A DNA stretch of 64,000 nucleotides from Synechococcus sp. J7-Johnson (GTDB lineage Bacteria > Cyanobacteriota > Cyanobacteriia > PCC-6307 > Cyanobiaceae), in assembly GCF_024345795.1 (NCBI RefSeq), contig NZ_JAGQBU010000011.1:1-64000 (forward strand), read 5' to 3'. Numbering within the stretch: the stretch's first letter is position 1; each line of letters starts with the position of its first letter. The notes beneath the pieces are model-generated. The model searched no databases and had not been told where the DNA came from. It saw only the letters and a list, made by a program, of their open reading frames with translations. Both the position numbers and the translations under genes were made by a program. Of the stretch, positions 4,455-30,387 are shown piece after piece.

Positions 4455-4596
4455 CATGCCGAACTGCCTGGTGGGCATCCAGAGCGTCCGCATCGGGGCT
4501 GAGCCAGAGTGGTCTCGCGCACGGATCGGACCGGCATCGCGTTTCACAGCCGACCGTTGTTCAGCTTCGCCGCTCCACCCCCTTCGCCCCACCTCC

Positions 4597-7119
4597 ATGA
4601 CCGACGCTCCGCCCAGCCAGCTGAGGCTGCCCACCCCGGGCTGCTTCGCCGACCCAGATCGCAGCGGCCTCACGGCCGATGGTGTCTTCGACGGAATGAC
4701 CGAGCATCTCTTCTACACGCTCGGACAGCTCGCCCCCACCGCCAGCCACCACGACCTCTACGTGGCCCTGAGCTACGCGGTGCGCGACCGGCTTATGACC
4801 CGCTATCTGGCTGGGATCGAGGCGATCTCGGCCACGCCCACACGCGTGGTGGCCTACCTATCCGCCGAATTCCTGATCGGCCCCCAGCTGGGCAACAACC
4901 TGCTGATGCTCGGCATCCAGGACGAAGCCGCCGAGGCCCTGCGCCGTTTCGGAATTGACTCGCTCGAGGAGATCCTCGAGGTGGAGGAGGAACCGGGCCT
5001 GGGGAATGGGGGGCTCGGCCGCCTGGCCGCCTGCTACCTCGAGTCCCTGTCCAGCCTGGAGATTCCCGCCACCGGCTATGGCATTCGCTACGAGTTCGGG
5101 ATCTTCGACCAGCTGATCCGCGATGGCTGGCAGGTTGAGATCACCGACAAATGGCTCAAGAGTGGGTGGCCCTGGGAACTGCCCCGCCCCGACCAGGCCT
5201 GCTTCGTCGGCTTCGGCGGCCGCACCGAGAACTACCGCGACACCCAGGGGGATTACCGGGTGCGCTGGATTCCCTCCGAGCACGCCATCGGTGTCCCCCA
5301 CGACGTGCCCGTGCTGGGCTACAGGGTGAACACCTGTAACCGCCTGCGGCTGTGGTCAGCGGAGGCCTCAGAGAGCTTCGATTTCTACGCCTTCAACATC
5401 GGGGACTACTACGGCGCAGTTGAGGAGAAGGTGGGCTCCGAGACCCTCTCCAAAGTGCTCTATCCCAACGACGGCACCGATGAAGGCCGGCGCCTGCGCC
5501 TCAAGCAGCAGCACTTCTTCGTGAGCTGCTCTCTCCAGGACATGCTGCGCAGCCTGGAGCTGCGTGACCTGCCGATCACCGAGTTCCCGGAGCACTGGTC
5601 GGTGCAGCTCAACGACACCCACCCTGCGATCGCGGTGGCCGAGCTGATGCGGTTGCTGATCGATCACAAACAGCTGAGCTGGGATGCCGCCTGGGACATC
5701 ACCACCCGCTCGTTGGCCTACACCAACCACACACTCTTGCCTGAAGCCCTGGAGAAATGGGGCCTGGATCTCTTCGGCTCACTGCTGCCGCGACACCTGG
5801 AGCTGATCTTCGAGATCAACCGACGCTTCCTGCACACGGTGCGGCTGAAGCATCCAGGCAACGAGACGATGCTGCAGCGGGTATCGATCATCGATGAGAA
5901 CGACGGCAAGGCGGTGCGCATGGCCCACCTGGCCACCGTGGCCTCCCACCACGTCAACGGTGTGGCGGCCCTGCACAGCGAACTGGTGCGCACCCAGCTC
6001 TTCCCTGAATTCGCCTCCCTCTGGCCCGAGAAGTTCACCAATGTCACCAACGGCGTCACGCCCCGGCGCTGGATCGCCCTCGCCAACCCGCTGCTGCGGG
6101 AACTGCTCAATGAGGTGATCGGCCAGGACTGGGTGCGCAACCTCGACGACCTGCGCCAGCTGGAGGCTTTCCAGAACGACGCTGGCTTCCTGGAGCGCTG
6201 GGGCCAGACCAAGCTGGCGGTGAAACGTCATCTGGCCCAGTACATCCACCGCCAGAGCGGACTGCTGGTAGATCCTTCCTCGCTCTTCGATGTGCAGGTG
6301 AAGCGGATCCACGAATACAAGCGCCAGCACCTGAATGCCCTGCAGGTGATCGCCCAGTACCTGCGCATCAAGAACGGCCTCGGAGACAACTTCGCCCCGC
6401 GCACCGTGATCTTCGGAGGCAAGGCGGCACCTGGCTACTACATGGCCAAGCTGATCATCCGCTTCCTCAACGGCATTGCCGAAACGGTCAACGCCGACCC
6501 TGACATGGACGGCCGCCTGCGGGTGGTGTTCCTGCCTGACTACAACGTCAGCCTGGGGCAACGGGTGTATCCGGCCTCGGACCTCTCCGAGCAGATCTCC
6601 ACCGCTGGGCTGGAAGCCTCCGGCACCGGCAACATGAAATTCGCCATGAACGGGGCGCTCACGATCGGCACTCTCGATGGCGCCAACGTGGAGATCCGCG
6701 AGCAGGTGGGAGCCGAGAACTTTTTCCTGTTCGGCCACACCACCGACGGCATTGAGGCCCTGCGCGCAGGTGGATACCGCCCCTGGGAGCTGATCGCCAG
6801 CATCCCGGAACTGCCGGAGGCGCTGCGGCTGGTGGAGAAGGGTCACTTCAGCAATGGCGACACGGAGCTGTTCAAGCCCCTGCTGCAGAACCTCACCAGC
6901 CGTGATCCCTACTACCTGATGGCCGACTTCAGCGACTACATGCGCGCCCAGGACGCGGTCAGTCAGACCTGGGGTGATCGCACCACCTGGAACCGGATGT
7001 CACTGCTGAACACGGCGCGCACGGGCTTCTTCAGCAGCGACCGCTCAATCCGCGAGTACGCCAAGCGGATCTGGCAGGCAGAGCCATTCCCGGTGACGAT
7101 CAGCTGCGAGATCGACTGA
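4597..7119 (+). CDS. glgP: Glycogen/starch/alpha-glucan phosphorylase (copy 1)
   Basis: Releases glucose-1-phosphate from glycogen using pyridoxal phosphate. The ATG at 4597 gives MTDAPPSQLRLPTPG and 840 residues, the usual family length; an upstream in-frame start at 4456 adds 47 residues unlike the family. The PLP lysine is K681 in GTGNMKFAMNG. Other hallmarks are GLGNGGLGRLAAC, NDTHPAIAVAELMR, NVTNGVTPRRW and VQVKRIHEYKRQ. It is clearly diverged from the two tandem copies at 17091-22161: NGALTIGTLDGANVEIRE against NGAVTIGTLDGANIEIRD, and a different N-terminus. It stands alone on the plus strand. Confidence 0.95.
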   Translation: MTDAPPSQLRLPTPGCFADPDRSGLTADGVFDGMTEHLFYTLGQLAPTASHHDLYVALSYAVRDRLMTRYLAGIEAISATPTRVVAYLSAEFLIGPQLGNNLLMLGIQDEAAEALRRFGIDSLEEILEVEEEPGLGNGGLGRLAACYLESLSSLEIPATGYGIRYEFGIFDQLIRDGWQVEITDKWLKSGWPWELPRPDQACFVGFGGRTENYRDTQGDYRVRWIPSEHAIGVPHDVPVLGYRVNTCNRLRLWSAEASESFDFYAFNIGDYYGAVEEKVGSETLSKVLYPNDGTDEGRRLRLKQQHFFVSCSLQDMLRSLELRDLPITEFPEHWSVQLNDTHPAIAVAELMRLLIDHKQLSWDAAWDITTRSLAYTNHTLLPEALEKWGLDLFGSLLPRHLELIFEINRRFLHTVRLKHPGNETMLQRVSIIDENDGKAVRMAHLATVASHHVNGVAALHSELVRTQLFPEFASLWPEKFTNVTNGVTPRRWIALANPLLRELLNEVIGQDWVRNLDDLRQLEAFQNDAGFLERWGQTKLAVKRHLAQYIHRQSGLLVDPSSLFDVQVKRIHEYKRQHLNALQVIAQYLRIKNGLGDNFAPRTVIFGGKAAPGYYMAKLIIRFLNGIAETVNADPDMDGRLRVVFLPDYNVSLGQRVYPASDLSEQISTAGLEASGTGNMKFAMNGALTIGTLDGANVEIREQVGAENFFLFGHTTDGIEALRAGGYRPWELIASIPELPEALRLVEKGHFSNGDTELFKPLLQNLTSRDPYYLMADFSDYMRAQDAVSQTWGDRTTWNRMSLLNTARTGFFSSDRSIREYAKRIWQAEPFPVTISCEID

Positions 7120-11812: not shown

Positions 11813-13963
11813 TCAGTCAGGGCCGGCCAGCACGGTCCCGATCAGCTCGGCCCACCGAAACCCGGCTGCACGCACAGCCGCCAGAGCCGCCTCCGCCTCC
11901 GACTCCGGCATGGCCGCCAGCAGCGGACCGCAGGTCTGGGGATCGATCAGCAGCTCCCGCAGGGGGGCCGTGAGCGGCACGGCCTGAACCCTGCCGCTCT
12001 CCAGCTCCTCCCAGGCGCTGCGGTTGGCGGGCGCCAGGCTGCTGGCGAAACCCTGCTCCAGCAGCTCCACCGCCCCGGGGAAGGCCGGCAACGCCTGCAG
12101 CTTCAGCTGAACCCGCAGAGGCCCCGGCGCGGCGCGCAGCATCTCACCGAGGTGCCCCAGCAGCCCGAACCCGGTGACATCGGTACAGGCACGGCAGCCA
12201 TGGGCGGCCAGCAGCTCCACGAGCGACTGCTGGCTCTGGGCCATCAGCTCCAGAGCCCCATCGATCCACTCGGGCTCCGCCGCTCCGGCCATGGCGCCCG
12301 CGAAGAGCACGCCGCTTCCGATCGGACGGCTGAGCAGCAACCGATCACCGGCCGCCAGATCGCCTTTGGCCCAGAAGCGGCCCGGCTCACAGCGGCCGTT
12401 CACACTCAGGGCAAGGCTGAGTCCCTCAGCGGCGCTGCGCTGCTCCAGGGTGTGCCCCCCCACCAGCCGGGCGCCGAGGGGATCGAGCACGGAGCGCACC
12501 CCGGCCAGGGTCTGAAGCAACCACTCCTCCTGCAACGCAGCCCTCCCCCGCGGCAGGGTCACCAGGGCCTGGACACTCTCCACCCGGGCGCCACAGGCCC
12601 AGAGGTCGGAGCAGGCATGCAGGGCGGTCAGCCGCCCGTTCAGCCAGTCGTCTCCCACCAGGGCGGGGAAGCCATCGAGGCTCTGCAGCACCAGTCCTTC
12701 CTCAGGGGAACCGGCGATCACGGCGGCATCCTCCAAAGCGGGATCTTCAGCGCCAATCAGAACCCCATCCGCCTTTCCGGCTCCAGCTGCGGCCCCACTC
12801 AGCCGCTCCAGGGCCGCGCGCAGGGGATCGGCGCCCAATTTGGCGGCGCAGCCCCGGCAAGGGCTCTGCTCGGCCATCGGAGCCAGAGCCTGGAAGCGGG
12901 TGATGAAGCGGCGGTCGATCCAGGCCTTGCACCGCCACAGCCAACGGGAGGGGCCCAGGCAGAGCGGTCCCCACATGGCCAGGGCACGCGGTTGGCCATC
13001 GACGGCCCCACCATCCCCCAGCAGCTGCAGAGCATGGCGTGGCGGGTTCCAGCGGCGCAGGGGTTCAGAGCGCAGGGAGCGGCGCAGGTTGAACGCCAGC
13101 ACGGGAGCCACCCGCACGGCCCACACCCCGCTGGGGGGGCGTGGCAGCGAGCGCACCAGGCCGCAGTCGCCGCAGGCGAACACTCCGGGATGGCCCTCCA
13201 CCTCCAGGCTGGCCTCCGTGAATACCCGTCCCGTGACCGGGTCGCAGGGCAGACCGCCGGCCGCCAGCCAGAGCGGAGCCCGGCTGCCGGTGCAGCGCAC
13301 AAGCGGACCCGATCCATGGGCCGAGGCCCTGTCATCAGCCTCGGGGTCCAGGCTCCGCAAAGGCACGCCCGCCGCCGCCAGCATCCGCTCACCGGCCCGG
13401 TTGGCCGCAGGCGTGCCCAGGGCAAGGCTGTGCCCTCGCCGCACCAGCTCCACCCGCACTCCCCGGGCCTTCAGGGCCATGGCAACTTCCACCCCGGCCG
13501 CCCCGCCGCCAAGCACCCGGCCGGGTGGCGGGCCAGGTGCCAGCGACTCCCACCAGTCCAGGAACGGCTCCAGCGGCTTGATCGCCATCCCACCGGTGCC
13601 CGTGGTGACAGCCCCCACATCCAGGCTGAGCCGGTCCCAGCGCAGGGGGGGACGGCCGGCCAGCTGCAGCTCACGCTTGGCAGGATCCAGGCCGGTGATC
13701 TCGGCCCGCACGAAGCACACCCCAGCACGATCGCAGAGGCGGCGGAGATCGATGGCGGCTTCGCGGCGGCTGTAAAGCCCTGCGATCAGGCCCGGCACCA
13801 TGCCGCTGTAAAGGGCTGTGCTGGCACGGCTCACGAGGGTGATCAGTACCCCCCGGGGCAGGCCCTCCATGGCCCAGCGGCGCAGCAGCAGGGCATGGCT
13901 GTGGCCACCCCCGGCCAGGATCAGGTGCTGCTGGAGTGTCTCCTCAGTCCCCACGCGGCCCAT
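11813..13963 (-). CDS. selD: Flavoprotein oxidoreductase fused to selenide, water dikinase
   Basis: A two-domain protein of 716 residues. Residues 1 to about 355 form an NADH-dehydrogenase-like FAD/NAD(P) oxidoreductase: dinucleotide site LILAGGGHSH at 14-23, a second GGGAAGVEVA, and FACGDC at 263-267. From about 365 it is selenophosphate synthase, with the nucleophile segment CRGCAAKLGADPL (C369, C372, K375), then EDPALEDAAVI and the C-terminal DVTGFGLLGHL. The active site uses Cys rather than selenocysteine. This N-terminal fusion is a recognised family in cyanobacteria. The ATG at 13963 overlaps galE by 20 bases; a GTG at 13954 is possible. No selA or selB is visible, so tRNA selenation is the likelier use. 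Confidence 0.9.
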   Translation of the reverse strand: MGRVGTEETLQQHLILAGGGHSHALLLRRWAMEGLPRGVLITLVSRASTALYSGMVPGLIAGLYSRREAAIDLRRLCDRAGVCFVRAEITGLDPAKRELQLAGRPPLRWDRLSLDVGAVTTGTGGMAIKPLEPFLDWWESLAPGPPPGRVLGGGAAGVEVAMALKARGVRVELVRRGHSLALGTPAANRAGERMLAAAGVPLRSLDPEADDRASAHGSGPLVRCTGSRAPLWLAAGGLPCDPVTGRVFTEASLEVEGHPGVFACGDCGLVRSLPRPPSGVWAVRVAPVLAFNLRRSLRSEPLRRWNPPRHALQLLGDGGAVDGQPRALAMWGPLCLGPSRWLWRCKAWIDRRFITRFQALAPMAEQSPCRGCAAKLGADPLRAALERLSGAAAGAGKADGVLIGAEDPALEDAAVIAGSPEEGLVLQSLDGFPALVGDDWLNGRLTALHACSDLWACGARVESVQALVTLPRGRAALQEEWLLQTLAGVRSVLDPLGARLVGGHTLEQRSAAEGLSLALSVNGRCEPGRFWAKGDLAAGDRLLLSRPIGSGVLFAGAMAGAAEPEWIDGALELMAQSQQSLVELLAAHGCRACTDVTGFGLLGHLGEMLRAAPGPLRVQLKLQALPAFPGAVELLEQGFASSLAPANRSAWEELESGRVQAVPLTAPLRELLIDPQTCGPLLAAMPESEAEAALAAVRAAGFRWAELIGTVLAGPD

Positions 13964-14984
13964 AGCCCTGGGGATTGGCACTCTGCCAGGCCCAGCCATC
14001 GCGGCAGATGGCGTCGAGGTCGCGGTGCGTGCGCCAGGCCAGCCGCCGCTCCGCCAGCGATGGATCCGCCACCGTGGCCGCCACATCCCCGGGGCGCCTC
14101 GGCACCAGGTCGCAGGGAACGGCGTTGCCGCAGGCCCGCTCGAAGGCGGCCACCACCTCCAGGACCGAATGGCCCCGGCCGCTGCCCAGGTTGAGGGTGA
14201 GCAACTGGGGGGGCTCAGCCATCAGCACCTCCAGGGCCGCCCGATGACCGTCGGCCAGATCCATCACATGGATGTAATCGCGGACGCCGGTGCCGTCAGG
14301 GGTTGGCCAGTCGGAGCCGAACACCTGCAGCCGCGGCCGACGCCCCACCGCCACCTGGCTAAGGAAGGGGAAGAGGTTGTTGGGGATACCGCCTGGATCC
14401 TCGCCGATGCGGCCGCTGGGATGGGCACCGACGGGATTGAAATAGCGCAGGCGCGCCACCCGCCAGCCAGGCTCGCTGGCCCACACATCGGCCAGCATCT
14501 GCTCCACCGCCGCCTTGGTATAGCCGTAGGGGTTCACTGGAGCGACCCGGGCGGTTTCGGCGATCGGCACCGTCTCCGGGGCCCCGTAGAGCGTTGCACT
14601 GCTGCTGAAGACGATCGTGCGGCAGCCGGCCTGAACCATGGCCGCCAGCAGAGCGCGGCTGCCGCAGAGGTTGACGTCCCAGTAGCGCAGGGGATCTGCC
14701 ACCGATTCAGCCACGGCCTTGAGACCGGCGAAATGAACCACGGCCTCGATCGGCGCCGCAGCGAAGGCCCGCTTCAGGTCGGCGCCGCTGCGCAGATCGC
14801 CTTCGATCAGCTGCAGCCGTGGGGCGGCCAGCGGGCCGGCCAGCTCCTGGACCCGTCTTAGGGCTTCGGGTGAACTGTTGGAAAAGTCGTCGAGCACCAC
14901 CAGCTCATGACCCGCCTCCAGCAGCACCAGGCAAGTGTGGCTGCCGATGAAGCCAGCACCGCCGGTGATCAGCAGCTGGCTCAT
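13944..14984 (-). CDS. galE: UDP-glucose 4-epimerase
   Basis: Interconverts UDP-glucose and UDP-galactose with bound NAD. This is a 346-residue extended short-chain dehydrogenase. The GGAGFIGSH dinucleotide motif is at 8-16 and SSSATLYG lies near 127-134. The catalytic pair is Y153 and K157 in NPYGYTK, followed by RYFNPVGAHPSG, typical of GalE. It overlaps the DUF2126 gene upstream by 4 bases (ATGA) and selD downstream by 20, so all three appear to be translated from one message. Its place behind the peptide-ligase cassette may be incidental. Confidence 0.93.
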   Translation of the reverse strand: MSQLLITGGAGFIGSHTCLVLLEAGHELVVLDDFSNSSPEALRRVQELAGPLAAPRLQLIEGDLRSGADLKRAFAAAPIEAVVHFAGLKAVAESVADPLRYWDVNLCGSRALLAAMVQAGCRTIVFSSSATLYGAPETVPIAETARVAPVNPYGYTKAAVEQMLADVWASEPGWRVARLRYFNPVGAHPSGRIGEDPGGIPNNLFPFLSQVAVGRRPRLQVFGSDWPTPDGTGVRDYIHVMDLADGHRAALEVLMAEPPQLLTLNLGSGRGHSVLEVVAAFERACGNAVPCDLVPRRPGDVAATVADPSLAERRLAWRTHRDLDAICRDGWAWQSANPQGYGPRGD

Positions 14985-17086
14985 GCCAGCCTCAGATCAA
15001 GGGTGCGCAGACCGCCCGCCGGTGCGGGCCATGGGACGCCGTGGACGCCCCACTCATCGCCTTCCTGAGGAGTCTCAATGGGCTCGAAGCTGATCCGCTC
15101 CGATCCCTCTGCCCCAAGCTGGAAGCGAGCCGGGTCGGCGTCAAGGCCGCTGATCTCCAGCCGCAGAGGCAGGTGCGGATCGATGCAGGGGTGGAGGGAG
15201 GGATAGAGGCGGCTGTGGCGGTAGCGCAGGCCGAGCCAGCCGTCGCCCAGGGGCAGTTCCCGGCCGTTAAGGCGCAGCGAACAGGACTGCAGGAATGCCG
15301 TGTTTGCCTTCAGCTCAAGGCGCTGCAGGGAACTGTCCACGAAACGGCTGGTGTTGCCCCCCTGAACCGGGGTATCGCAGAGCAGGGGCCATGGCTCGAG
15401 AGCCCTGCGAATCTCCAGCCTGGCTGCCTCCTGCTCCCAGCTCAGCAACAGGGGGAAACGCCACTCCCAGATGGCACGGAAGGGTTCAGGCTCCAGCACC
15501 AGACCATCGCGCGCCAGCAGATCCAGCACCGCTTGGAGGTCAGACCAGATGGCCTGAGGCAGCTGCATCGCATCGTGGAGACGATCCCCGAAGGGCTCGA
15601 GCCGGGTGGGGCGGTGGGCCGGATCGAGCAGATGGGCGGCCAGGGCGCTCCAGAGCAGGGCGATGGCCGCTGTCCAGTCGGGATCGGGCAGGGTTTCGAT
15701 CGCGCGGAACTCGATCAGGCCCTGGCAGCCGGCCGCCCAGGCGGGATTCCAGAACTTGTCGAAGCTGATCTCGCTGCGGTGGGTGTTGCCACTGCGGTCG
15801 GCATGGAGGTGGCGCAGGGTCTCGCTGATCAGTACCCGCTGATCCCCTTCAGGTAGAGATTCGATCGCCCGGTGTGCAAGCTGCAGATCAAGGGAACTGG
15901 CGCTGCCTTCATCGAGGCGGGGGGCCTGGGACGCCGGTCCGACGGAACTGTTTCCGAACAGGTAGGAGAGGCTGGGATGCCGCTGCCAGAAGCGCAGGAT
16001 CCCCACCAACCAAGCCGGTCTTGAAAAGAAAGGATTGGTCTCGAGGCTGGGGCCACCCCAGAGCAGATGGTTGCCACCGCCGGTTCCTTCCTGGCGATGA
16101 TCCCCCACCTGCTTCCAGCTGCGCAGCCCCACCGCTTCCGAGGCCTCGCTCAGGGTGCGGATCCAGAAGCTGTAGTCAGCCCAGCCGTGGCAGACCGGCA
16201 GATTCACCTCCAGCACGCCGGGATCAGCCGTCAGGCCCAGCACGTTCCAGCGACCGTCGAGATCATGAGGGAGGACGCCGCTGAGTTCAGGCTGGCTCCA
16301 ACCGGCACTGGCCTCGGCGATCAGATGCAGCAGCTGCTCCAGGGGCTGGCGGTGCAGGGGAGGCAGGAACAGGTTCCAACCACGGGGGCTCACCTCCAGG
16401 GTGAGCACCTGGCGCAGCACTCCCTCAGGAAAATGCTGCAGCGGCAGGCGCAACCCCGCCGGGCCGCTGGCTGGAAGCAGCTGGCGCAGGGGTTTGGCCA
16501 GGGGCCAGCGGGCCGCCTGCCAGCCCTCGGGGAGATCGGGTTCCTCCTCTGTCGGGATGCTGTGGGACAGGGGGACAGCCCAGACCTTGGAGCTGGGATC
16601 AAGGGGATCCTTCAGCCGCAGGGGGTGGACCTCATGGCCGAGGGCCTTGCCGATCCCATGGAGAAACTCCTCGGCCCGCTTGGCCGGCAGGGGAATGGGA
16701 GCAGCCTGATCGGCCGGGGATTGGGCCGACGCCTGCTGGGGCCATGGCACCAGTGGGCTGCCATCGAGGCCTGTGATAAGCCTCAGCGCCCAGCGGGGGT
16801 TGACCTCGCCATCGTAGCGCTTGCCCGGGCAGTACATCAAGGTGCTGCCGGGCCAGACCCGCCGCTGCAGTTCGGCGGCCAGACGCCGCGCGTAGCTCAG
16901 CTTGGTGGGGCCGTCGGCCGCCACCGACCACTCGGCACCCTCGGGGTCGATCGGCACCACGGTGGGCTCACCGCCAAGGGTGAGCTGAATGCCTTTGGCA
17001 CTCAGGCGCCGCTCCGCCTCCGCGGCGGTGACGGCCATCCAGCCGGGATCCACGGATGCGGGCCGGATCGACTCAGTGACCACCAT
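14981..17086 (-). CDS. DUF2126 protein without the usual N-terminal transglutaminase domain
   Basis: A 701-residue protein that matches the large C-terminal region of the transglutaminase-DUF2126 proteins. Recognisable blocks are QLTLGGEPTVVPID followed by GPTKLSYARRLAAEL, CPGKRYDGEVNPRWAL and EVNLPVCHGW; the last resembles a glutamine-synthetase-like fold. Homologues are often about 1100 residues with a transglutaminase in front. Here that domain is missing and a separate transglutaminase is encoded 5 kb upstream, beyond two glycogen phosphorylase genes. The ATG at 17086 starts 5 bases after the glgP stop and its end overlaps galE. The predicted role is peptide-bond formation or processing with the ATP-grasp and alpha-E proteins; it has not been proven biochemically as far as I know. 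Confidence 0.85.
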   Translation of the reverse strand: MVVTESIRPASVDPGWMAVTAAEAERRLSAKGIQLTLGGEPTVVPIDPEGAEWSVAADGPTKLSYARRLAAELQRRVWPGSTLMYCPGKRYDGEVNPRWALRLITGLDGSPLVPWPQQASAQSPADQAAPIPLPAKRAEEFLHGIGKALGHEVHPLRLKDPLDPSSKVWAVPLSHSIPTEEEPDLPEGWQAARWPLAKPLRQLLPASGPAGLRLPLQHFPEGVLRQVLTLEVSPRGWNLFLPPLHRQPLEQLLHLIAEASAGWSQPELSGVLPHDLDGRWNVLGLTADPGVLEVNLPVCHGWADYSFWIRTLSEASEAVGLRSWKQVGDHRQEGTGGGNHLLWGGPSLETNPFFSRPAWLVGILRFWQRHPSLSYLFGNSSVGPASQAPRLDEGSASSLDLQLAHRAIESLPEGDQRVLISETLRHLHADRSGNTHRSEISFDKFWNPAWAAGCQGLIEFRAIETLPDPDWTAAIALLWSALAAHLLDPAHRPTRLEPFGDRLHDAMQLPQAIWSDLQAVLDLLARDGLVLEPEPFRAIWEWRFPLLLSWEQEAARLEIRRALEPWPLLCDTPVQGGNTSRFVDSSLQRLELKANTAFLQSCSLRLNGRELPLGDGWLGLRYRHSRLYPSLHPCIDPHLPLRLEISGLDADPARFQLGAEGSERISFEPIETPQEGDEWGVHGVPWPAPAGGLRTLDLRLA

Positions 17087-17090
17087 CGGC

Positions 17091-19544
17091 TCAGCGGGTG
17101 CCCGGCTGGGCCGATGACAGAACCGTGCAGGCATTGATGGGCATCGACTCCACGTTCCAGATCCGCTCTGCATAGTCGCGGATCGAGCGGTCGCTGCTGA
17201 AGAAACCGCAACGGGCGGAATTCAGCAGAGACATCCGGCTCCAGCCGACGGCATCCACCCAGGCGGCATCCACGGCGTTGTGAGCCTGGCGGTAATCGCC
17301 GATGTCGGCCATGACCCGGAAGGGATCGCTGCCACAGAGGTTTGCCAGCAGGGGGTGGAACAGGTCGCGATCGCCCTCACTGAAATGACCCGAGCCGATC
17401 AGATCGATGGCCTCCCGTGCGATCGGATCATTCTCCAGCCAGGGCATCGGGTGGTAGCCGCCTCTGTTGATCGCCTCCAGCTGCTCGGCGGTGTGGCCGA
17501 ACAGGAAGAAGTTGTCGTGACCGACGAGATCCCTGATCTCGATGTTGGCGCCATCAAGGGTGCCGATCGTGACGGCCCCATTCAGGGCCATCTTCATATT
17601 GCCGGTGCCGGAGGCCTCCAGGCCGGCGGTGGAGATCTGCTCGGAGAGGTCCACCGCTGGGTAGACCTTCTGCCCCAGGCTGACACTGAAGTTGGGCAGG
17701 AACACCACCCGCAGGCGCCCGTCCATGGCCGGATCCATGTTCACGATCTCGGCGATGCCGCCGATCAGGCGAATGATCAGCTTGGCCATGGCGTAGCCCG
17801 GCGCAGCCTTACCGCCGAAGATGAAGGTGCGCGGCGGCAGGTCCTCGCCATTGCGGATGCGCAGATAACGCTCGACGATCTGCAGGGCCGCCAGGTGCTG
17901 GCGCTTGTATTCGTGGATCCGCTTCACCTGCACGTCGAACAGGGAGGAGGGATCCACCAGCACGCCCACCTGCTGGTGAATCAAGTTGGCGAGGCGTTGC
18001 TTGTTCAGATCCCGCACGTCGCGCCAGCGCTCCAGGAAGCCTCCATCGTCGGCATACGACTCCAGGCGAGAGAGCTCGCCGAGGTCGCGGCGCCAGGTGC
18101 TGCCGATGGTGTCATCGAGCAGGCCCGAGAGGGACGGATTTGCCACGGCAATCCAGCGCCTGGGGGTGACGCCATTGGTGACATTGGTGAACTTCTCCGG
18201 CCACAGCTCCACGAAGGGAGCGAAGAGGTCCTTGCGCACCAGCTTGCTGTGCAGCTCCGCCACACCGTTGACCCGGTGGCTGCCCACCACCGCCAGGTTG
18301 GCCATGCGCACCTTGCGGTAAGGCCCCTCCTGGATCAGCGACATCCTCTCCAGCAGAGCCGGCTGGCCGGGGTTGCGGATGCGCACCATGCGCAGGAAAC
18401 GAGTGTTGATCTCGAAGATGATCTCCAACTGTCGAGGCAGCAGCTGCTCGAACAGGTCGACTCCCCAGGTCTCGAGGGCCTCCGGCAGCAGGGTGTGGTT
18501 GGTGTAGCTGATGCAGGCTGTGGTGATCGACCAGGCCGTATCCCAGTCGACGCCGTGCTCATCGATCAGCAGCCGCATCAGCTCGGCCACCGCGATCGCT
18601 GGGTGGGTGTCATTGAGCTGAACGGCGAACTTGGTGTGGAACTCCGTGACCGGCAACCCCTGCCCCTTGAGGATGCGGAACATGTCCTGCAGGGAGCAGC
18701 TCACGAAGAAGATCTGCTGACTCAGGCGCAGTTGCTTGCCCTGGTCGGTCTCATCGTTCGGATAGAGCACCTTCGAGAGGGTCTCCGAATTGATCTTCTG
18801 CAGCACCGCCCGGGTGTAGTCACCGGCATTGAAGGAGGCAAAGTCGAAAGATTCCGGCGCCTGGGCCGACCACAGCCGCAGGGTGTTGGCGGTGTGAACC
18901 CCGTAGCCCAGGATCGGGGTGTCGTAGGCCACACCAAGCACCGTGTGACCGCCGATCTTGACCGGATAGGACCATTCAGCACGGATCACCTCCCAGGGAT
19001 TGCCCTGGGCCAGCCAGGGATCGGTGCTCTCCACCTGGCAGCCCCGCTGGATCTGCTGGCGGAAGATGCCGAATTCGTAGCGGATGCCGTAGCCGATCGC
19101 CGGCAGCTCAAGGCTGGCCATCGACTCCTGGAAACAGGCGGCCAGACGACCCAGGCCACCGTTGCCCAGACCAGGCTCGGGCTCCTCGGCGATCAGGTGC
19201 ATCAGGTCGAGGCCCAGCTCATCACAGGCTGCCTGGGCCGCCTCACGCAGACCCAGGTTGACCAGGTTGTTCTCCAGGTGAGGGCCGAGAAGATACTCGG
19301 CTGAGAGGTAGGACACCGTGCGCACCCCACTCTGGGTGTAGGCCTCGGCCGTATCCACCCAGTTCTGCAGCAGCTGATCGCGCACGGCCATCGCCAGCGA
19401 GCAGTAGTAATCGTGGTTGGTGGCCAGTGACGGGGACTTGGCCTGGGTGAAGAACAGGTGCCGGCGCATCGCCTCGGCCAGGGCGTGGCCATCCAGGGAT
19501 GACGACGCGCCAAGGTCGGTTGGAGGGACGGTACTGGCTGCCAT
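17091..19544 (-). CDS. glgP: Glycogen/alpha-glucan phosphorylase (tandem copy 2)
   Basis: An 817-residue phosphorylase with the PLP lysine at K651 in GTGNMKMALNG and the usual GLGNGGLGRLAAC, NDTHPAIAVAELMR and VQVKRIHEYKRQ blocks. It is nearly identical over most of its length to copy 3 immediately upstream, with the same number of codons, so the pair is a recent tandem duplication. The start is ATG at 19544 (MAASTVPPTDLG), the equivalent of MASSNAPPIDLSG in copy 3. The C-terminal 20 residues differ. The stop is 4 bases before the DUF2126 gene, implying translational coupling to it. No substrate difference between the copies can be read from sequence. Confidence 0.95.
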   Translation of the reverse strand: MAASTVPPTDLGASSSLDGHALAEAMRRHLFFTQAKSPSLATNHDYYCSLAMAVRDQLLQNWVDTAEAYTQSGVRTVSYLSAEYLLGPHLENNLVNLGLREAAQAACDELGLDLMHLIAEEPEPGLGNGGLGRLAACFQESMASLELPAIGYGIRYEFGIFRQQIQRGCQVESTDPWLAQGNPWEVIRAEWSYPVKIGGHTVLGVAYDTPILGYGVHTANTLRLWSAQAPESFDFASFNAGDYTRAVLQKINSETLSKVLYPNDETDQGKQLRLSQQIFFVSCSLQDMFRILKGQGLPVTEFHTKFAVQLNDTHPAIAVAELMRLLIDEHGVDWDTAWSITTACISYTNHTLLPEALETWGVDLFEQLLPRQLEIIFEINTRFLRMVRIRNPGQPALLERMSLIQEGPYRKVRMANLAVVGSHRVNGVAELHSKLVRKDLFAPFVELWPEKFTNVTNGVTPRRWIAVANPSLSGLLDDTIGSTWRRDLGELSRLESYADDGGFLERWRDVRDLNKQRLANLIHQQVGVLVDPSSLFDVQVKRIHEYKRQHLAALQIVERYLRIRNGEDLPPRTFIFGGKAAPGYAMAKLIIRLIGGIAEIVNMDPAMDGRLRVVFLPNFSVSLGQKVYPAVDLSEQISTAGLEASGTGNMKMALNGAVTIGTLDGANIEIRDLVGHDNFFLFGHTAEQLEAINRGGYHPMPWLENDPIAREAIDLIGSGHFSEGDRDLFHPLLANLCGSDPFRVMADIGDYRQAHNAVDAAWVDAVGWSRMSLLNSARCGFFSSDRSIRDYAERIWNVESMPINACTVLSSAQPGTR

Positions 19545-19604
19545 GGAGGCGGATCGAGTCAACTTCTCCCTTCATGCTGCGGGAGCCCACCCCATCGCTG
19601 CTGG

Positions 19605-19628
19605 AACGGTTACCGATTCAGGTTCATT
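19605..19628 (-). promoter_or_regulatory. Upstream element of glgP copy 2 shared with copy 3
   Basis: The 24-base block beginning AACGGTTACCGATTCAGG (plus-strand reading) lies 61 bases before the start codon. It matches 21 of 24 positions with the block at 22221-22244, which lies 60 bases before copy 3. A second shared block (CTTCATGCT) sits closer to each gene. Conservation at the same distance in a non-coding gap suggests a duplicated promoter or leader element. The factor that binds it is unknown. Confidence 0.5.
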
Positions 19629-19707
19629 CCAGGTTCCCGAAGGATTCAGCTCGGACAGGCAGCAGGCTGCCGCGCCAGACACGGCCGTCTCCGCGCTCAC
19701 CGCCGCC

Positions 19708-22161
<2,454 letters not shown>

Positions 22162-22220
22162 GACGTGGGGTCCCTCGATGGGCTCCTTCATGCTTCGGAA
22201 GCCAGCCTGGATGCTGCGCC

Positions 22221-22244
22221 AACGGTTACCAATTCATCTTCATT
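22221..22244 (-). promoter_or_regulatory. Upstream element of glgP copy 3 shared with copy 2
   Basis: The block beginning AACGGTTACCAATTCATC (plus-strand reading) sits 60 bases before the glgP copy 3 start. It is the partner of the block at 19605-19628, with three differences in 24. It occupies the only gap larger than a few bases between the transglutaminase and phosphorylase genes, so an internal promoter is plausible. Confidence 0.5.
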
Positions 22245-22271
22245 TCCCCTTTTGTGCGCCCCCTGACCGGG

Positions 22272-23162
22272 TCAGTAGTGGAGCAGGTTGGGGGCGACGT
22301 GCTCCTCGCTGAGCACCTCCGCCTGGATCGACCAGCTCATTTCGCTCTTCACGCCCGGTGGTCCTGAAAAGGTCCCCGACACCGCCGCGGTGAGACTCGG
22401 CCTGGACGAGGTGGCCAGGGGGATGTAGCGGTCATCGATCGCGCCCATGCCGCTCGGATCGAATCCACGCCATCCTGCCCCGGGGAGATACACCTCCGCC
22501 CAGGCATGGAGGTCATAGCGCTTGGGCGTCGGCTCGACGAGGTGATAGCCGCTCACGAACCGCGCTGGCAGGCCCACGCAACGGCAGGCCTCGATCATCA
22601 GCACCGCCAGGTCGCGGCAGGATCCGACCCGCTCCCGCAGGGTGCGGCCCGCAGGCCAGGCTGGGCCGGCGTGGCGCTGGGTGTACTTCACCCGGTCCTG
22701 GATCATCTCCACGAGTTGCTGCAGAAACATCAGCGCCCGTTGATCGCTGCCCATCAGCGCCTCCTGAGCCAGCTCCACTGCCGCAGGATCGTGCTGCCCG
22801 TTAGGCAGCCAGCCTTCGAGGCTTCCGATCAGATCGCCATTGAGATGACCGACGGGATAGGGAAGCTCCGGCTCGTTCTCCGCCAGGCAAACCTGGAGCA
22901 GGGGTGGCACCTTCGTCTCCACCTCGCTGACGGCGCGGATGTCGAAGGTGTCGGTGCAGCCGATGAAGCGGGCGCGCAGGATGTCGTCCCCGCTGGCAGC
23001 CACGAGCGGGTGCAGATGGTGCGGATCCGGCGAAAAACACAGATCGAAACTGATCAGGCGCTGAAATCCCTGAGCCCGCGGTTTCATGCACAACCGGTGA
23101 GGGCCGAGCTGGACGGGCGCGCTGTAGCGATAGCCGAGGGAATGGATTACGCGGGCGCGCAT
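22272..23162 (-). CDS. Transglutaminase-like cysteine protease family protein
   Basis: A 296-residue protein with the N-terminal beta-sandwich region typical of the family (RARVIHSLGYRYSAPVQLGPH) and a complete papain-like triad. The residues are C182 in GSCRDLAVLMIEACR, H219 in HAWAEVYLPGAGW and D235 in FDPS. It belongs with the alpha-E and circularly permuted ATP-grasp genes upstream in a cassette proposed on comparative-genomic grounds to make and trim a peptide or peptide tag. It overlaps the alpha-E gene by 16 bases. No signal peptide is seen, so the reaction is probably cytoplasmic. Confidence 0.9.
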   Translation of the reverse strand: MRARVIHSLGYRYSAPVQLGPHRLCMKPRAQGFQRLISFDLCFSPDPHHLHPLVAASGDDILRARFIGCTDTFDIRAVSEVETKVPPLLQVCLAENEPELPYPVGHLNGDLIGSLEGWLPNGQHDPAAVELAQEALMGSDQRALMFLQQLVEMIQDRVKYTQRHAGPAWPAGRTLRERVGSCRDLAVLMIEACRCVGLPARFVSGYHLVEPTPKRYDLHAWAEVYLPGAGWRGFDPSGMGAIDDRYIPLATSSRPSLTAAVSGTFSGPPGVKSEMSWSIQAEVLSEEHVAPNLLHY

Positions 23163-24172
23163 GCCAGGGAGGAGGTGGAGGCTGACGGCAGGGGGGTGGT
23201 GGGAGGAACGGCGACGGTTGCCGGGGATGGCGTCGGCAGAACGAAATAGCGCTCGTTGATCAGCTCATGAAGACGGTTGAGATCACCCTGAAACTGGTCG
23301 ATCGCCTCATGCAGGCCCCTGTTGACCAGCTCGTCAATCCGCACATAGCTCCAGTTGGCCAGCATCAGGCCGGCAAGGCATTCGAGATCATCGGGCGGCC
23401 CCGGCACCGGATTGCCACGGATCACCCTCAGGGACTTGTTCAATCCCTCCAGGCAGTAGCGCACCGAACGGGGAAAGATCGGGTCGAGCAGAAGGAAAGC
23501 TGCCACCGCCTTCGGAGCGATCGCCTGCTGCTGTGACTGGCGGAACATCTGATAGGCCCCGGCTGAGCGCAGCAGTGAGATCCACTGGAGCTCATCAAGA
23601 ACACCGCCCACCTCCTCAGTACTGGGCAGGAGCAGGTAGTACTTGACATCCAGAATGCGGCTTGTCTTGTCGGCGCGCTCAACCAGCCGACCCAGTTTGC
23701 TGAACTGCCAGGAGAGATCGCGGCTGAGGGTGGCATCGGTGATGCCATAGAAGAGCTGACAGCCCTTGCGGATCTCATTGAGCTGCTCCTGGCCAGGCAA
23801 CTGCCAGAAGCCCTCGCTCTCCTGCAGGATGAGATAAAGGTCGTTGATCTGCTCCCACATCTCGGTGGTTATCACCTCACGGATCTGGCGGGCGTTCTCC
23901 CGGGCGAAAGCTATGCAGTTGACGATGCTGCTCGGATTGCCGGGCTCATTGACGAGGAAGCGCACCACGTCGGCAGGCCGGCCCTCGGGAAAGAGCTTGT
24001 CGAACAATTCACGATCGCCGCTGGCGTCGATCAGGGGCACCCAGGGCTCGGCGCTGCCGGGTGGGCAGTCAAGCGCCATCGCCTCACTGACTTCCAGGAA
24101 GCGGGAGATGTTCTCGGCACGCTCCACATAACGGTTGATCCAGTAGAGCGAATCAGCGACGCGGCTCAACAT
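23147..24172 (-). CDS. Alpha-E domain protein (DUF403)
   Basis: A 341-residue all-helical protein. The N-terminus MLSRVADSLYWINRYVERAENISRFLEV is the alpha-E signature. Later blocks such as SFSKLGRLVERADKTSRILDVKYY and CLEGLNKSL are also family features. Its biochemical role is unknown; it occurs almost always beside a circularly permuted ATP-grasp protein and a transglutaminase, as here. It overlaps both neighbours (7 bases upstream, 16 downstream), so the three are translated as a unit. The start at 24172 is ATG and fits the family exactly. Confidence 0.92.
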   Translation of the reverse strand: MLSRVADSLYWINRYVERAENISRFLEVSEAMALDCPPGSAEPWVPLIDASGDRELFDKLFPEGRPADVVRFLVNEPGNPSSIVNCIAFARENARQIREVITTEMWEQINDLYLILQESEGFWQLPGQEQLNEIRKGCQLFYGITDATLSRDLSWQFSKLGRLVERADKTSRILDVKYYLLLPSTEEVGGVLDELQWISLLRSAGAYQMFRQSQQQAIAPKAVAAFLLLDPIFPRSVRYCLEGLNKSLRVIRGNPVPGPPDDLECLAGLMLANWSYVRIDELVNRGLHEAIDQFQGDLNRLHELINERYFVLPTPSPATVAVPPTTPLPSASTSSLACAPA

Positions 24173-25605
24173 GAGGATTCATCCACGATCCAGGTGTCCT
24201 TACAGCCACCGCCCTGGGAGGAGTTGACCACCAGCGAACCGCGGCGCAGAGCAACGCGCGTGAGCCCGCCGGGACTAACCCAGGCACCCTTACCGCGCAG
24301 CACATAGGGGCGCAGATCCACATGGCAGGGATAGAGCTCCCCCTCACTGAGGGAGGGAACGGTGGAGAGCTCCAGCGTGGGCTGGGCGATGAAATTGCGA
24401 GGATCGGCCTTGATCTTCTCGGCGAACTCGAGGATCTCCTGCTGGGAGGCATGGGGTCCGATCAGCATGCCGTAGCCACCGGCCTCACCCACCGATTTCA
24501 CCACCAGATCCTTGAGGTGGGCGAGCACATAGGCCTGGTCGTCGGGCCTTGAGCAGATGTAGGTGGGAACGTTCTCGATGATCGGCTCTTCGCCCAGGTA
24601 GTAGCGGATCATCTCCGGCACGTAGGCGTAGATCAGCTTGTCGTCGGCCACGCCGGTGCCCGGGGCATTGGCGATCGCCACCCGGCCGGCGGCATAGGCC
24701 TCCATCAGGCCGCGCACCCCAAGCATCGAATCGCTGCGGAAGACAGCCGGATCGAGGAAGTCGTCGTCGATGCGGCGGTAGATCACATCCACCGGCGCAT
24801 GGCCGGAGGTGCTCCGCATCCAGACGCGGTTCGCCTCGCAGACCAGATCCCGTCCCTCCACCAGCTGGATGCCCATCTGCTGGGCGAGATAGCTGTGCTC
24901 GAAGTAGGCGCTGTTGAACACCCCGGGCGTGAGCAGCACCACGGTAGGGGTGTCGGTCCAGGGGGCGAGTTCCCGCAGGGCCTGCAGCAGATGGGAGGGG
25001 TAGTCGTCGATGGGATGAACGGTGCGTCCGGCGAACAGGCTCGGGAACATCCGTTTCATCACCCGGCGGTTCTCGAGGAAGTACGCCACACCGGAGGGAC
25101 AACGGAGGTTGTCCTCCAGCACCCGCCAGGTGCCCTGGCCATCACGGATGAGATCCAGACCGGAGATGTGACACCAGCGGTTGAGGGGCGGGTGGAACCC
25201 CCGCATCTGGGGTCGCCAGCCATGGGAGGTCTCGATATCCTCGAGCGGCACGACGCCATCAGCGACGATCTTCTGCTCGCCGTAGACGTCGCCCAGGAAG
25301 TGATCGATCGCCTCGAGGCGCTGGATCAGGCCCCGTTCGAGCGTCTGCCACTCACCGGAGCGGATCAGCCTTGGCAGGGGATCGAAGGGAAGGATGCGCT
25401 CCACTCCCTGCTCGCCGGAATCGTTCAGACGGAAGGTGGCTCCAAGCCGCTTCAGCAGCATGCCGGCTGCTGCATGGCTGCGGTTGATCTCCTCGATTCC
25501 GAGCTGGCCAAGGGAGGAGAGGAGGGGCTGAAGCGCGGAACGGGGCTCCGCTGAGGCGCTGAAGTACTCGTCGTAGCCCTTGCTCGGCTTGTAGGAGGTG
25601 AACAT
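24166..25605 (-). CDS. Circularly permuted type 2 ATP-grasp protein (DUF404/DUF407)
   Basis: Predicted to join a carboxylate to an amine with ATP. The 479-residue form from the ATG at 25605 starts MFTSYKPSKGYDEYFS, as the family does; in-frame starts at 25623, 25647 and 25653 would add up to 16 residues. Recognisable blocks are GVFNSAYFEHSYLAQQMG, DVIYRRIDDDFLDP, NAPGTGVADDK and the C-terminal DLRPYVLRGKGAWVSPGGLTRVA. It is the first gene of the minus-strand run 25605-11813. Substrates of this family have not been defined as far as I know. Confidence 0.92.
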   Translation of the reverse strand: MFTSYKPSKGYDEYFSASAEPRSALQPLLSSLGQLGIEEINRSHAAAGMLLKRLGATFRLNDSGEQGVERILPFDPLPRLIRSGEWQTLERGLIQRLEAIDHFLGDVYGEQKIVADGVVPLEDIETSHGWRPQMRGFHPPLNRWCHISGLDLIRDGQGTWRVLEDNLRCPSGVAYFLENRRVMKRMFPSLFAGRTVHPIDDYPSHLLQALRELAPWTDTPTVVLLTPGVFNSAYFEHSYLAQQMGIQLVEGRDLVCEANRVWMRSTSGHAPVDVIYRRIDDDFLDPAVFRSDSMLGVRGLMEAYAAGRVAIANAPGTGVADDKLIYAYVPEMIRYYLGEEPIIENVPTYICSRPDDQAYVLAHLKDLVVKSVGEAGGYGMLIGPHASQQEILEFAEKIKADPRNFIAQPTLELSTVPSLSEGELYPCHVDLRPYVLRGKGAWVSPGGLTRVALRRGSLVVNSSQGGGCKDTWIVDESSC

Positions 25606-25741
25606 CGACTCGGCCTCGGGCATGCCGTGATCATGCAGAGTTGGCATGGCCACAGCCAGTGGTCGTTGCTACGGAATCGGGGGGCTCGCTGGCACCTTCA
25701 CTCTGACACCGGCATGGCCAAGGGGGGAGGCAGAGCAGATT

Positions 25742-30342: not shown

Positions 30343-30343
30343 G

Positions 30344-30357: not shown

Positions 30358-30362
30358 CTTTG

Positions 30363-30375: not shown

Positions 30376-30387
30376 TGGTCTACGTCG

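What the first reader, a model, noticed from the sequence alone, without database searches (positions are those of the whole stretch)
14981..25605. Tandem glycogen phosphorylases inside an ATP-grasp/alpha-E/transglutaminase/DUF2126 cassette
The circularly permuted ATP-grasp, alpha-E and transglutaminase genes overlap one another and run on toward the DUF2126 gene. Between transglutaminase and DUF2126 lie two full-length glycogen phosphorylase genes, the second ending 4 bases before DUF2126. The cassette is predicted from comparative genomics (Iyer, Aravind and colleagues) to make or attach a peptide, with no proven product as far as I know. Close coupling with glycogen breakdown suggests either a peptide or amide linked to glycogen physiology, or a chance insertion. 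I infer the former only weakly.
Basis: partly seen in the sequence, partly recalled or inferred. Interest (0 to 1): 0.75.

Follow-up and report, generated by a model that had tools for sequence, protein, structure and literature searches.

The report
Glycogen phosphorylase tied to nitrogen-starvation genes
In small freshwater cyanobacteria a second form of the glycogen-breaking enzyme keeps turning up beside nitrogen-shortage genes, here inside a cluster of unknown product that sits behind the urea-splitting genes, which suggests that using stored sugar is wired to nitrogen hunger; the doubled copy in this genome looks like the scar of a gene-block swap.

Summary
On the minus strand lie CP-ATP-grasp, alpha-E, transglutaminase, two intact glycogen phosphorylases (GlgP-B1, GlgP-B2; 85% alike) and DUF2126, then galE.

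A survey of 111 family genomes shows the insertion is not chance. glgP lies between transglutaminase and DUF2126 in 14 genomes of 5 genera. It belongs to a separate phosphorylase class, GlgP-B. Of 31 GlgP-B genomes found, 15 have it in or at the cassette and 11 beside glnN (type III glutamine synthetase, nitrogen-starvation induced in Synechocystis); all 31 carry glnN. The cassette has a conserved NtcA-like promoter (36 of 38 non-redundant upstream regions). Proteobacterial homologues are induced by nitrogen limitation in print.

Among the genomes examined, the tandem copy occurs only here and in Synechococcus sp. 1G10. It marks a block replacement: ATP-grasp to GlgP-B1 is a divergent allele, while ureC, GlgP-B2 and DUF2126 match sister strains.

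Best reading: an N-starvation locus, with GlgP-B mobilising glycogen when nitrogen runs short. Co-regulation is inferred, not shown. The cassette product remains unknown. New variant of a known kind.

The parts
   Evidence: PF00449/PF01979, TIGR01792 963 bits
25659..25672 (-). NtcA-like site GTAGCAACGACCAC (GTA-N9-AC), 54-67 nt before the ATP-grasp ATG; fits GTN10AC, not the perfect GTAN8TAC
   Evidence: a GTA-N9-AC site at this place in 36 of 38 non-redundant loci
25630..25635 (-). -10-like CATGAT, starting 37 nt after the first base of the NtcA-like site, i.e. the class II spacing
24166..25605 (-). circularly permuted ATP-grasp (ligase-like), nearest solved structure 3n6x, putative glutathionylspermidine synthase
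   Evidence: PF14403 549 bits; phmmer 2.6e-157
23147..24172 (-). alpha-E helical protein of unknown role
   Evidence: PF04168; AF2 model pLDDT 87.5, all helical
22272..23162 (-). transglutaminase-like protein; Cys, His and Asp of the triad are present by eye in GSCRD, LHAWAE and FDPS (triad recalled)
   Evidence: PF01841 + PF08379; sequence
22213..22229 (-). conserved element GTAACCGTTGGCGCAGC before glgP-B1; CATGAA follows at 22187-22192 with the same 37-nt spacing
19708..22161 (-). glgP-B1, glycogen phosphorylase (start at 22161; 22191 also possible); belongs to the replaced block
   Evidence: PF00343 998 bits; tree
19597..19613 (-). second copy of the conserved element, GTAACCGTTCCAGCAGC, before glgP-B2
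17091..19544 (-). glgP-B2, the resident phosphorylase shared with sister strains (start at 19544; TTG at 19562 also possible)
   Evidence: PF00343 988 bits; 94-96% to the single copy of sister loci L061, L086-L088
14981..17086 (-). DUF2126, glutamine-synthetase-fold putative amidoligase, short form
   Evidence: PF09899 407 bits; VIA-align Z 15.7 to glutamine synthetase
13944..14984 (-). galE, UDP-glucose 4-epimerase; 4-nt overlap with DUF2126; next to DUF2126 also in genera g1, g37 and g48, not seen in g6 and g24
   Evidence: TIGR01179 405 bits
19700..25740 (-). block that differs from sister strains (ATP-grasp, alpha-E, TG, glgP-B1): 400-bp bins 71-90% identical against mostly 84-94% outside; edges approximate
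4456..7119 (+). third, standard cyanobacterial glycogen phosphorylase, for comparison (60-61% to the B copies)

Best explanation
The cassette is a nitrogen-starvation locus appended to the urea-utilisation genes. When nitrogen is short, 2-oxoglutarate-activated NtcA (inferred) turns on the promoter before the ATP-grasp gene. The cassette proteins then make or remodel an amide, peptide or gamma-glutamyl-type bond: two ATP-dependent ligase folds, one transglutaminase and alpha-E. GlgP-B, a second phosphorylase class of this family, is recruited to such loci. It releases glucose-1-phosphate from the glycogen that N-starved cells pile up, supplying energy and carbon skeletons for re-assimilating nitrogen. 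It has its own conserved promoter-like element inside the cassette. The tandem pair arose when a divergent allele of ATP-grasp/alpha-E/TG/glgP replaced the resident ATP-grasp/alpha-E/TG and left the resident glgP behind it. Shown by sequence: gene order, its conservation, the GlgP-B class and its neighbours, the promoter motif, the mosaic. Inferred: NtcA binding, induction, role in glycogen use, the cassette chemistry.
For: (1) Urease: 40 of 56 family genomes with the ATP-grasp have ureC upstream within 15 kb on the same strand; of the other 16, 6 are far on the same contig, 8 on another contig, 2 lack ureC. (2) Promoter: GTA-N9-AC at -75..-45 of ATP-grasp in 36 of 38 non-redundant loci, composition shuffles mean 0.47, largest 4; perfect GTAN8TAC at -60..-66 in all 29 Prochlorococcus loci whose upstream region could be read, of 30. 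In Anabaena 508 NtcA ChIP sequences keep GTN10AC and canonical sites centre at -41.5 (PMC3898017, passages). (3) GlgP-B is one class. Of 31 GlgP-B genomes found, 14 have it between TG and DUF2126, 1 after DUF2126, 11 beside glnN (gene gap up to 2.4 kb; 6 divergent, 5 convergent), 5 elsewhere. 31 of 31 carry glnN, against 12 of the other 80. glnN is N-starvation induced in Synechocystis (PMC6316151, passages). (4) Distant homologues: P. putida PP_2686-2688 up 11-37-fold on N limitation in three strains, together with urtABCD (PMC7801951, passages; that PP_2687-2688 are alpha-E and ATP-grasp is inferred from the Anbu operon); B. cenocepacia I35_5080-5083 NtrC-dependent (PMC5491218, passages). 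(5) In Synechocystis GlgP2, not GlgP1, degrades glycogen in N starvation (PMC6514691, passages). (6) Mosaic: dS against sister L088 is ureC 0.31, B2 0.34, DUF2126 0.39 but ATP-grasp 0.61, alpha-E 0.82, TG 0.97, with edges near 25.75 and 19.7 kb and gene trees that agree.
Against: No expression or binding data for any of these strains were found. The window's site is GTAN8CAC, not the perfect consensus, and I chose motif and position after seeing them. As a positive control the GTA-N9-AC pattern failed: glnA of this genome matches only the looser GTN10AC (GTTACAACGGACAC at -104); of 11 glnN loci only 3 have GTA-N9-AC within 420 nt; urtA has none within 300 nt in L006 and L061. The glgP element lacks the AC of the right half-site. 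Non-cassette glgP-B genes have a related motif within 220 nt in 9 of 16, not tested against chance. 42 of 56 cassette genomes have no glgP between TG and DUF2126, and 26 of 56 have no detected GlgP-B. Five of 31 GlgP-B genes are at neither locus (some near contig ends). Co-occurrence counts are not corrected for relatedness; in the 49 genomes of 2.1 Mb or more the cassette/GlgP-B test falls to p 0.011, glnN/GlgP-B stays at 1e-5. In P. [quoted passage not shown]
Confidence: 0.6

Rival explanations
1. Positional hitch-hiking: the urease-cassette region is a recombination-prone accessory region in which glgP-B and other genes settle; neighbours share no regulation or pathway.
For: The block 19.7-25.75 kb has been replaced. 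Insertions differ between strains: MFS/TetR/ADH between ureA and ureD here and not in L006 or L086, 2-6 kb of other sequence between ureC and ATP-grasp in L010, L087, L089, L096. 26 of 56 cassette genomes have no detected GlgP-B. The AU test slightly rejects one clade of all cassette glgPs (p 0.042).
Against: It does not explain why the same phosphorylase class sits beside glnN in 11 of 15 non-cassette loci with two different orientations, why 31 of 31 carriers have glnN, or why an upstream element goes with the insertion across genera.
Confidence: 0.22
2. Direct pathway: GlgP-B, GalE and the ligases make one product, e.g. a glycopeptide or amide that starts from glucose-1-phosphate taken from glycogen.
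For: glgP-B2, DUF2126 and galE are packed with a 4-nt gap and a 4-nt overlap. DUF2126 has a glutamine-synthetase fold and the ATP-grasp a putative glutathionylspermidine-synthase relative.
Against: glgP is missing from 42 of 56 family cassettes, and ATP-grasp/alpha-E/TG/DUF2126 occur with no glgP match in the fetched flanks of planctomycete, Desulfosediminicola and Marinobacter loci (L068, L076, L077, L081). One genome (G068, a 90% complete draft) has GlgP-B and no detected cassette. glgP has its own promoter-like element.
Confidence: 0.12
3. The tandem pair is a simple tandem duplication kept for gene dosage.
For: Both copies are intact, under purifying selection (dN/dS about 0.09-0.10 between the window and L006), and each has its own upstream element.
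Against: B1-B2 dS is 0.61-0.66, far above the 0.34-0.35 that parts B2 from the single copy of L088 and L061, and ATP-grasp, alpha-E and TG show the same excess. The divergent block ends between B1 and B2. The four sister loci (L061, L086-L088) lack B1.
Confidence: 0.15
4. The promoter motif belongs to another CRP-family regulator, and the cassette answers to some signal other than nitrogen.
For: The window's site is imperfect for NtcA, and the glgP element more so. The GTA-N9-AC form is absent before glnA here and before 8 of 11 glnN genes.
Against: Perfect GTAN8TAC at the same place in Prochlorococcus; urease neighbourhood; the same 14-mer GTAGCAACCATGAC before glnN in L111 and L118 and before ATP-grasp in L007; NtrC control in Proteobacteria.
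Confidence: 0.15

Closest known systems
CP-ATP-grasp / alpha-E / transglutaminase / DUF2126 peptide-synthesis cassette (Iyer, Abhiman, Burroughs, Aravind 2009; seen only through papers that cite it, the paper is not held; its link with DUF2126 is recalled)
   Same: All four families, same strand, overlapping genes
   Different: One or two glgP genes inside; urease genes upstream; transglutaminase and DUF2126 are separate proteins, DUF2126 short; NtcA-like promoter
Anbu operon of Proteobacteria (PMC5666114, PMC6376114, passages)
   Same: ATP-grasp, alpha-E and transglutaminase in the same order; high Anbu expression in nitrogen starvation is cited there; the Yersinia bercovieri ATP-grasp releases phosphate from ATP
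   Different: No Anbu gene beside it; the only PF00227 hit of the genome is weak and on another contig (C45, E 4.8e-4); DUF2126 and glgP instead
NtrC-dependent clusters PP_2685-2688 (P. putida) and I35_5080-5083 (B. cenocepacia)
   Same: Homologous genes; strong response to nitrogen limitation or to loss of ntrC (passages)
   Different: Regulator is NtrC/sigma54; no glycogen phosphorylase in the passages seen
Synechocystis GlgP2 (slr1367), the phosphorylase needed in nitrogen starvation (PMC6514691, passages)
   Same: A second phosphorylase with a specialised role in N starvation
   Different: Not shown to be the orthologue of GlgP-B: in the tree the 47 family rows stand apart from the 6 other cyanobacterial rows used, and Synechocystis was not included by name

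Membership tests
CP-ATP-grasp/alpha-E/TG/DUF2126 cassette | CP-ATP-grasp, alpha-E, transglutaminase and DUF2126 on one strand in close array | tested here: met
   interrupted by two glgP genes
CP-ATP-grasp/alpha-E/TG/DUF2126 cassette | Makes or attaches a peptide | not testable with these tools
   Product unknown
Anbu operon | Proteasome-like Anbu gene in the operon | tested here: not met
   PF00227: one weak hit in the genome, on C45, none on the window's contig C3
Glycogen/starch phosphorylase (GT35, TIGR02093) | Full PF00343/TIGR02093 domain and the PLP-lysine motif EASGTGNMK | tested here: met
   TIGR02093 1079 bits for both, cut-off 553; motifs (their roles recalled)
Glycogen/starch phosphorylase (GT35, TIGR02093) | Phosphorolysis of glycogen | not testable with these tools
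   Needs enzyme assay
Canonical NtcA class II promoter | GTAN8TAC | tested here: not met
   Window has GTAN8CAC; perfect in the 29 readable Prochlorococcus loci and in L022, L095, L096
Canonical NtcA class II promoter | GTN10AC centred so that the -10 box lies at class II distance | tested here: met
   37 nt from first base of the site to CATGAT; GTN10AC is conserved in 508 Anabaena ChIP sequences
Canonical NtcA class II promoter | NtcA binding and nitrogen response | not testable with these tools
   No expression data found
Glutamine-synthetase-fold amidoligase (DUF2126) | Glutamine synthetase fold | tested here: met
   AF2 model pLDDT 78; all 50 listed VIA-align rows are glutamine synthetases or relatives, best Z 15.7, rmsd 4.3, 276 aligned; Foldseek alone is weak, best E 4e-3, TM 0.18-0.30

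The most novel reading that the evidence does not exclude
GlgP-B is a dedicated nitrogen-starvation glycogen phosphorylase of picocyanobacteria whose gene has moved repeatedly between the two nitrogen-starvation loci, glnN and the urease-linked amidoligase cassette. Glycogen release is thereby put under nitrogen control. The cassette may be a gamma-glutamyl/amide nitrogen-salvage system (glutamine-synthetase fold, transglutaminase, ATP-grasp, and in three marine Synechococcus loci a class I amidotransferase/peptidase C26) that draws on that carbon.
Probability: 0.35. Interest if true: 0.75.

Novelty: new variant of a known kind. Interest (0 to 1): 0.52.

Why it matters
The cassette has been described since 2009, and the papers seen here give it no product or proven role. 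Tying the cyanobacterial form to a conserved nitrogen-type promoter and to urease, in a phylum that lacks the Ntr two-component system (PMC6316151, passage), matches the NtrC control published for Proteobacteria and names the condition in which to look for its product. The GlgP-B class gives a testable genetic basis for how picocyanobacteria couple glycogen use to nitrogen shortage: a phosphorylase that follows glnN or the cassette around the genome.

Tried and rejected
Chance insertion in one strain: rejected, 14 of 111 genomes in 5 genera. Linkage of glgP and cassette across cyanobacteria: 60 class genomes were searched with PF00343 and with PF04168 (49 of 60 have alpha-E); reading the listed coordinates by eye I saw no such pair outside the family; this was not computed, and not all weak matches are listed.

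A single origin of all cassette glgPs: the tree needs two changes and the AU test gives p 0.042, while the shared upstream element favours one origin. Left open. The element's search pattern was written from cassette sequences, so its higher score there (14-17 in 17 rows, against 10-13 in 15 non-cassette rows) is partly circular. Of 9 cassettes read with DUF2126 directly after TG, two (L014, L104) have it at 14 of 17 and L019 and L020 at 12, so it may predate the insertion; background is 85 of 315,118 positions at 14 or more. L019 keeps a 73-codon glgP remnant there.

Alpha-E fold: best Z 9.0, spread over unrelated helical proteins (membrane complexes, bd oxidases; the NasR antiterminator at 8.8), within the range the tool calls uninformative for helical bundles. 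PDB sequence profile searches with alpha-E and DUF2126 gave nothing at E 0.1. Anbu near the cassette: none. NCBIfam gave no family for ATP-grasp, alpha-E, TG or DUF2126. My first neighbourhood layout by longest ORF was spoiled by antisense ORFs and was used only to pick neighbours for family searches.

Papers: none found that joins NtcA with this cassette (one search listed 12 of 166; one search listed all 9 papers with both NtcA and transglutaminase, the one cyanobacterial paper concerns another gene), glycogen phosphorylase with urease and transglutaminase in Synechococcus (8 of 10 listed), or a glnN-glgP neighbourhood (12 of 258 listed, listing only). These are limits of the held library. 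Papers were read as search passages only; none was read whole. Roles of the GlgP motifs and the TG triad, and the use of the name glnN for GSIII genes here, rest on family knowledge plus the cited passages.
Full report
What is there. The minus strand from 28128 to 11813 is one run of genes with no change of strand: ureA, ureB, ureC, CP-ATP-grasp, alpha-E, transglutaminase (TG), glgP-B1, glgP-B2, DUF2126, galE and a SelD/pyridine-nucleotide reductase-like gene. 136 bp part ureC from the ATP-grasp ATG at 25605. ureD is on the minus strand at 31420-32415, beyond an MFS/TetR/ADH insertion (28252-31446); ureE, F, G and urtA-E run on the plus strand from 32415 to 39805 (urtB, urtC and urtE are named by position only). 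The cassette is thus part of a urea-utilisation region.

How conserved is the order. In 111 family genomes (own genome included) CP-ATP-grasp is in 56, phosphorylase in 105, urease alpha in 76. ureC lies upstream on the same strand within 15 kb in 40 of the 56. In 14 genomes (genera g1, g6, g24, g37, g48) tblastn with window proteins shows glgP between TG and DUF2126, one copy in 13 and two in the window genome, and in G054 the glgP follows DUF2126. Eight of 80 named loci show the same order: Synechococcus sp. 1G10, ATX 2A4 and CS-1329, Cyanobium sp. CACIAM 14, Aljojuca 7A6 and Cruz-8D1, Aphanothece cf. minutissima CCALA 015 and an uncultured cyanobacterium; several of the 80 are short contigs that end inside the cassette. 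Prochlorococcus loci have ATP-grasp, alpha-E and TG without urease, glgP or DUF2126 matches within the fetched flanks.

A phosphorylase class of its own. GlgP-B1 and B2 are 85% identical to each other and 60-61% to the standard GlgP at 4456-7119. In a 53-row tree the 24 cassette glgPs and 16 others (15 elsewhere, 1 after DUF2126) form one class with SH-aLRT 100, apart from the standard glgP. I found 31 family genomes with this class: 30 with a full-length copy in the tree and G087 by a partial match; fragments could hide more. 14 hold it inside the cassette, 1 just after DUF2126, 11 beside a type III glutamine synthetase gene with a gap of at most 2.4 kb, 5 at neither place, some of these near contig ends. 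The 11 are 6 divergent and 5 convergent pairs in 6 genera, so the neighbourhood was formed or kept more than once. All 31 genomes carry type III glutamine synthetase; of the other 80 genomes 12 do. 30 of 31 carry the cassette; of the other 80, 26 do. These counts are not corrected for relatedness; among genomes of 2.1 Mb or more the first stays strong (p 1e-5) and the second is weak (p 0.011). In Synechocystis glnN is strongly induced in nitrogen-free medium (PMC6316151, passages), and GlgP2 but not GlgP1 degrades glycogen in nitrogen starvation (PMC6514691, passages).

Promoters. Before ATP-grasp the window has GTAGCAACGACCAC at 25672-25659, and CATGAT 37 nt after its first base. A GTA-N9-AC site occurs in the -75..-45 stretch of 36 of 38 non-redundant upstream regions drawn from 74 loci (composition shuffles: mean 0.47, largest 4); it is found in 6 of 38 in the longer -200..-90 stretch. 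The two misses are L020 and L038. In the 29 Prochlorococcus loci that could be read (of 30) the site is perfect, GTAN8TAC. Canonical NtcA promoters have GTAN8TAC centred at -41.5 and a TAN3T -10 box; 508 Anabaena ChIP sequences keep GTN10AC (PMC3898017, passages). Controls are mixed. No such motif lies within 300 nt of ureA in the 13 loci examined. glnA of this genome does not have the GTA-N9-AC form, only GTTACAACGGACAC, a GTN10AC. Of 11 glnN genes 3 have GTA-N9-AC within 420 nt; in L111 and L118 it is GTAGCAACCATGAC, identical to the ATP-grasp site of L007. I saw the motif before testing it, so the numbers describe rather than prove. A second element, GTAACCGTTGGNGCAGC, lies between TG and glgP with the same 37-nt spacing to CATGAA in clade 1 and in L095/L096, and more loosely in the Cyanobium clade. 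Both tandem copies have one. Its right half departs from NtcA's, so I do not call it an NtcA site.

Origin of the tandem pair. Among the genomes examined it occurs here and in Synechococcus sp. 1G10 only. Against sister strain L088, dS (Nei-Gojobori) is 0.31 for ureC, 0.34 for glgP-B2 and 0.39 for DUF2126, but 0.61, 0.82 and 0.97 for ATP-grasp, alpha-E and TG; B1 and B2 differ by dS 0.61; L061 gives the same picture. DNA identity to L088 in 400-bp bins is 90-94% over ureABC, 73-89% between about 25.75 and 19.7 kb, and 80-94% after that. Trees of alpha-E, TG and ATP-grasp put the window and 1G10 outside the sister-strain clade (which has SH-aLRT 100, 98 and 96), while DUF2126 and B2 put them inside it with support 100 and ureC with 91. 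The spacer before B2 matches the sister strains' TG-glgP spacer. A divergent ATP-grasp/alpha-E/TG/glgP allele therefore most likely replaced the resident one and left the resident glgP behind; no donor was found. Between the window and 1G10 the block genes are closer (dS 0.04-0.12) than the flanking genes (0.12-0.21), which fits a recent spread. All eight genes compared are under purifying selection (dN/dS 0.05-0.20).

Proteins. The phosphorylase motifs are intact. The ATP-grasp's only solved relative by sequence is 3n6x, a putative glutathionylspermidine synthase. DUF2126 has a glutamine-synthetase fold: best VIA-align Z 15.7, all 50 listed rows glutamine synthetases or relatives such as gamma-glutamylmethylamide synthetase, although Foldseek alone gave no match below 1e-3. 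The cassette thus codes for two ATP-dependent ligase folds and a transglutaminase. Alpha-E has no clear structural relative in the rows seen.

Nitrogen control elsewhere. P. putida PP_2686-2688 rise 11-37-fold on nitrogen limitation in three strains, with urtABCD, and are ascribed to NtrB/NtrC; the Anbu gene PP_2685 rises only 1.1-4.8-fold (PMC7801951, passages; PP_2685-2687 also rise in PMC3325844). B. cenocepacia I35_5080-5083 fall by 6.0-9.4 log2 units in an ntrC mutant (PMC5491218, passages). DUF403/404/407 were associated with urea-metabolism domains in marine metagenomes (PMC3597751, passages). Against this, PMC5666114 says that expression of Anbu and its operon does not change under various conditions (passage). 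A nitrogen role for the cassette is thus in print for Proteobacteria. In the papers searched I found no such statement for cyanobacteria, nor the glgP or glnN links.

Mechanism and its limits. Most likely the locus is switched on by NtcA when 2-oxoglutarate rises, and GlgP-B mobilises glycogen that accumulates in N-starved cells so that carbon and energy are at hand for assimilating scarce nitrogen, urea included. The cassette itself probably forms or exchanges amide bonds on a still unknown substrate. Shown: order, conservation, class, neighbours, motif, mosaic. Inferred: induction, enzyme role, product. I put 0.6 on the regulatory reading, 0.12 on a direct glycogen-to-product pathway and 0.22 on hitch-hiking; these overlap and need not sum to one.

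Noticed in passing
window 40190-41443 (-) and 41457-41470: An acetamidase/formamidase gene (PF03069) has a perfect GTAN8TAC site 13 bp before its listed start; with urt and ure genes this makes 25-41 kb an organic-nitrogen region. Two perfect sites occur in the window where shuffles give 0.30 on average.
   Followed up: partly
window 28252-31446: MFS sugar transporter, TetR regulator and zinc alcohol dehydrogenase sit between ureA and ureD; absent there in Synechococcus sp. 1G10 (L006) and L086.
   Followed up: partly
window 34000-42000: G+C falls to 0.57-0.60 over the urea transporter genes and just after, against about 0.65-0.71 on either side.
   Followed up: no
L026 8449-9261, also L027, L028: Marine Synechococcus loci have a class I glutamine amidotransferase / peptidase C26-like gene between ureC and the ATP-grasp (L026 copy searched, the others by clustering). 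Some such enzymes hydrolyse gamma-glutamyl bonds (recalled), a lead on the cassette's chemistry.
   Followed up: partly
L019 5148-5366: A 73-codon glgP remnant between TG and DUF2126 suggests loss of a cassette glgP.
   Followed up: partly
L013 18178-20310: A PAS-GGDEF-EAL protein follows DUF2126 in this Cyanobium; ORFs of the same rough cluster follow in several others.
   Followed up: no
L016: A contig titled Bifidobacterium breve MAG encodes picocyanobacterial ATP-grasp and alpha-E (84% and 83%), so it looks mis-binned.
   Followed up: no
L068, L076, L077, L079, L081, L083: Planctomycete, Desulfosediminicola and Marinobacter loci carry DUF2126 followed by a second, diverged ATP-grasp and TG, in five of the six also alpha-E, directly downstream.
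   Followed up: no
window 11813-14086: SelD/pyridine-nucleotide reductase fusion-like ORF overlaps galE by about 140 nt as listed; its true start is probably further in.
   Followed up: no
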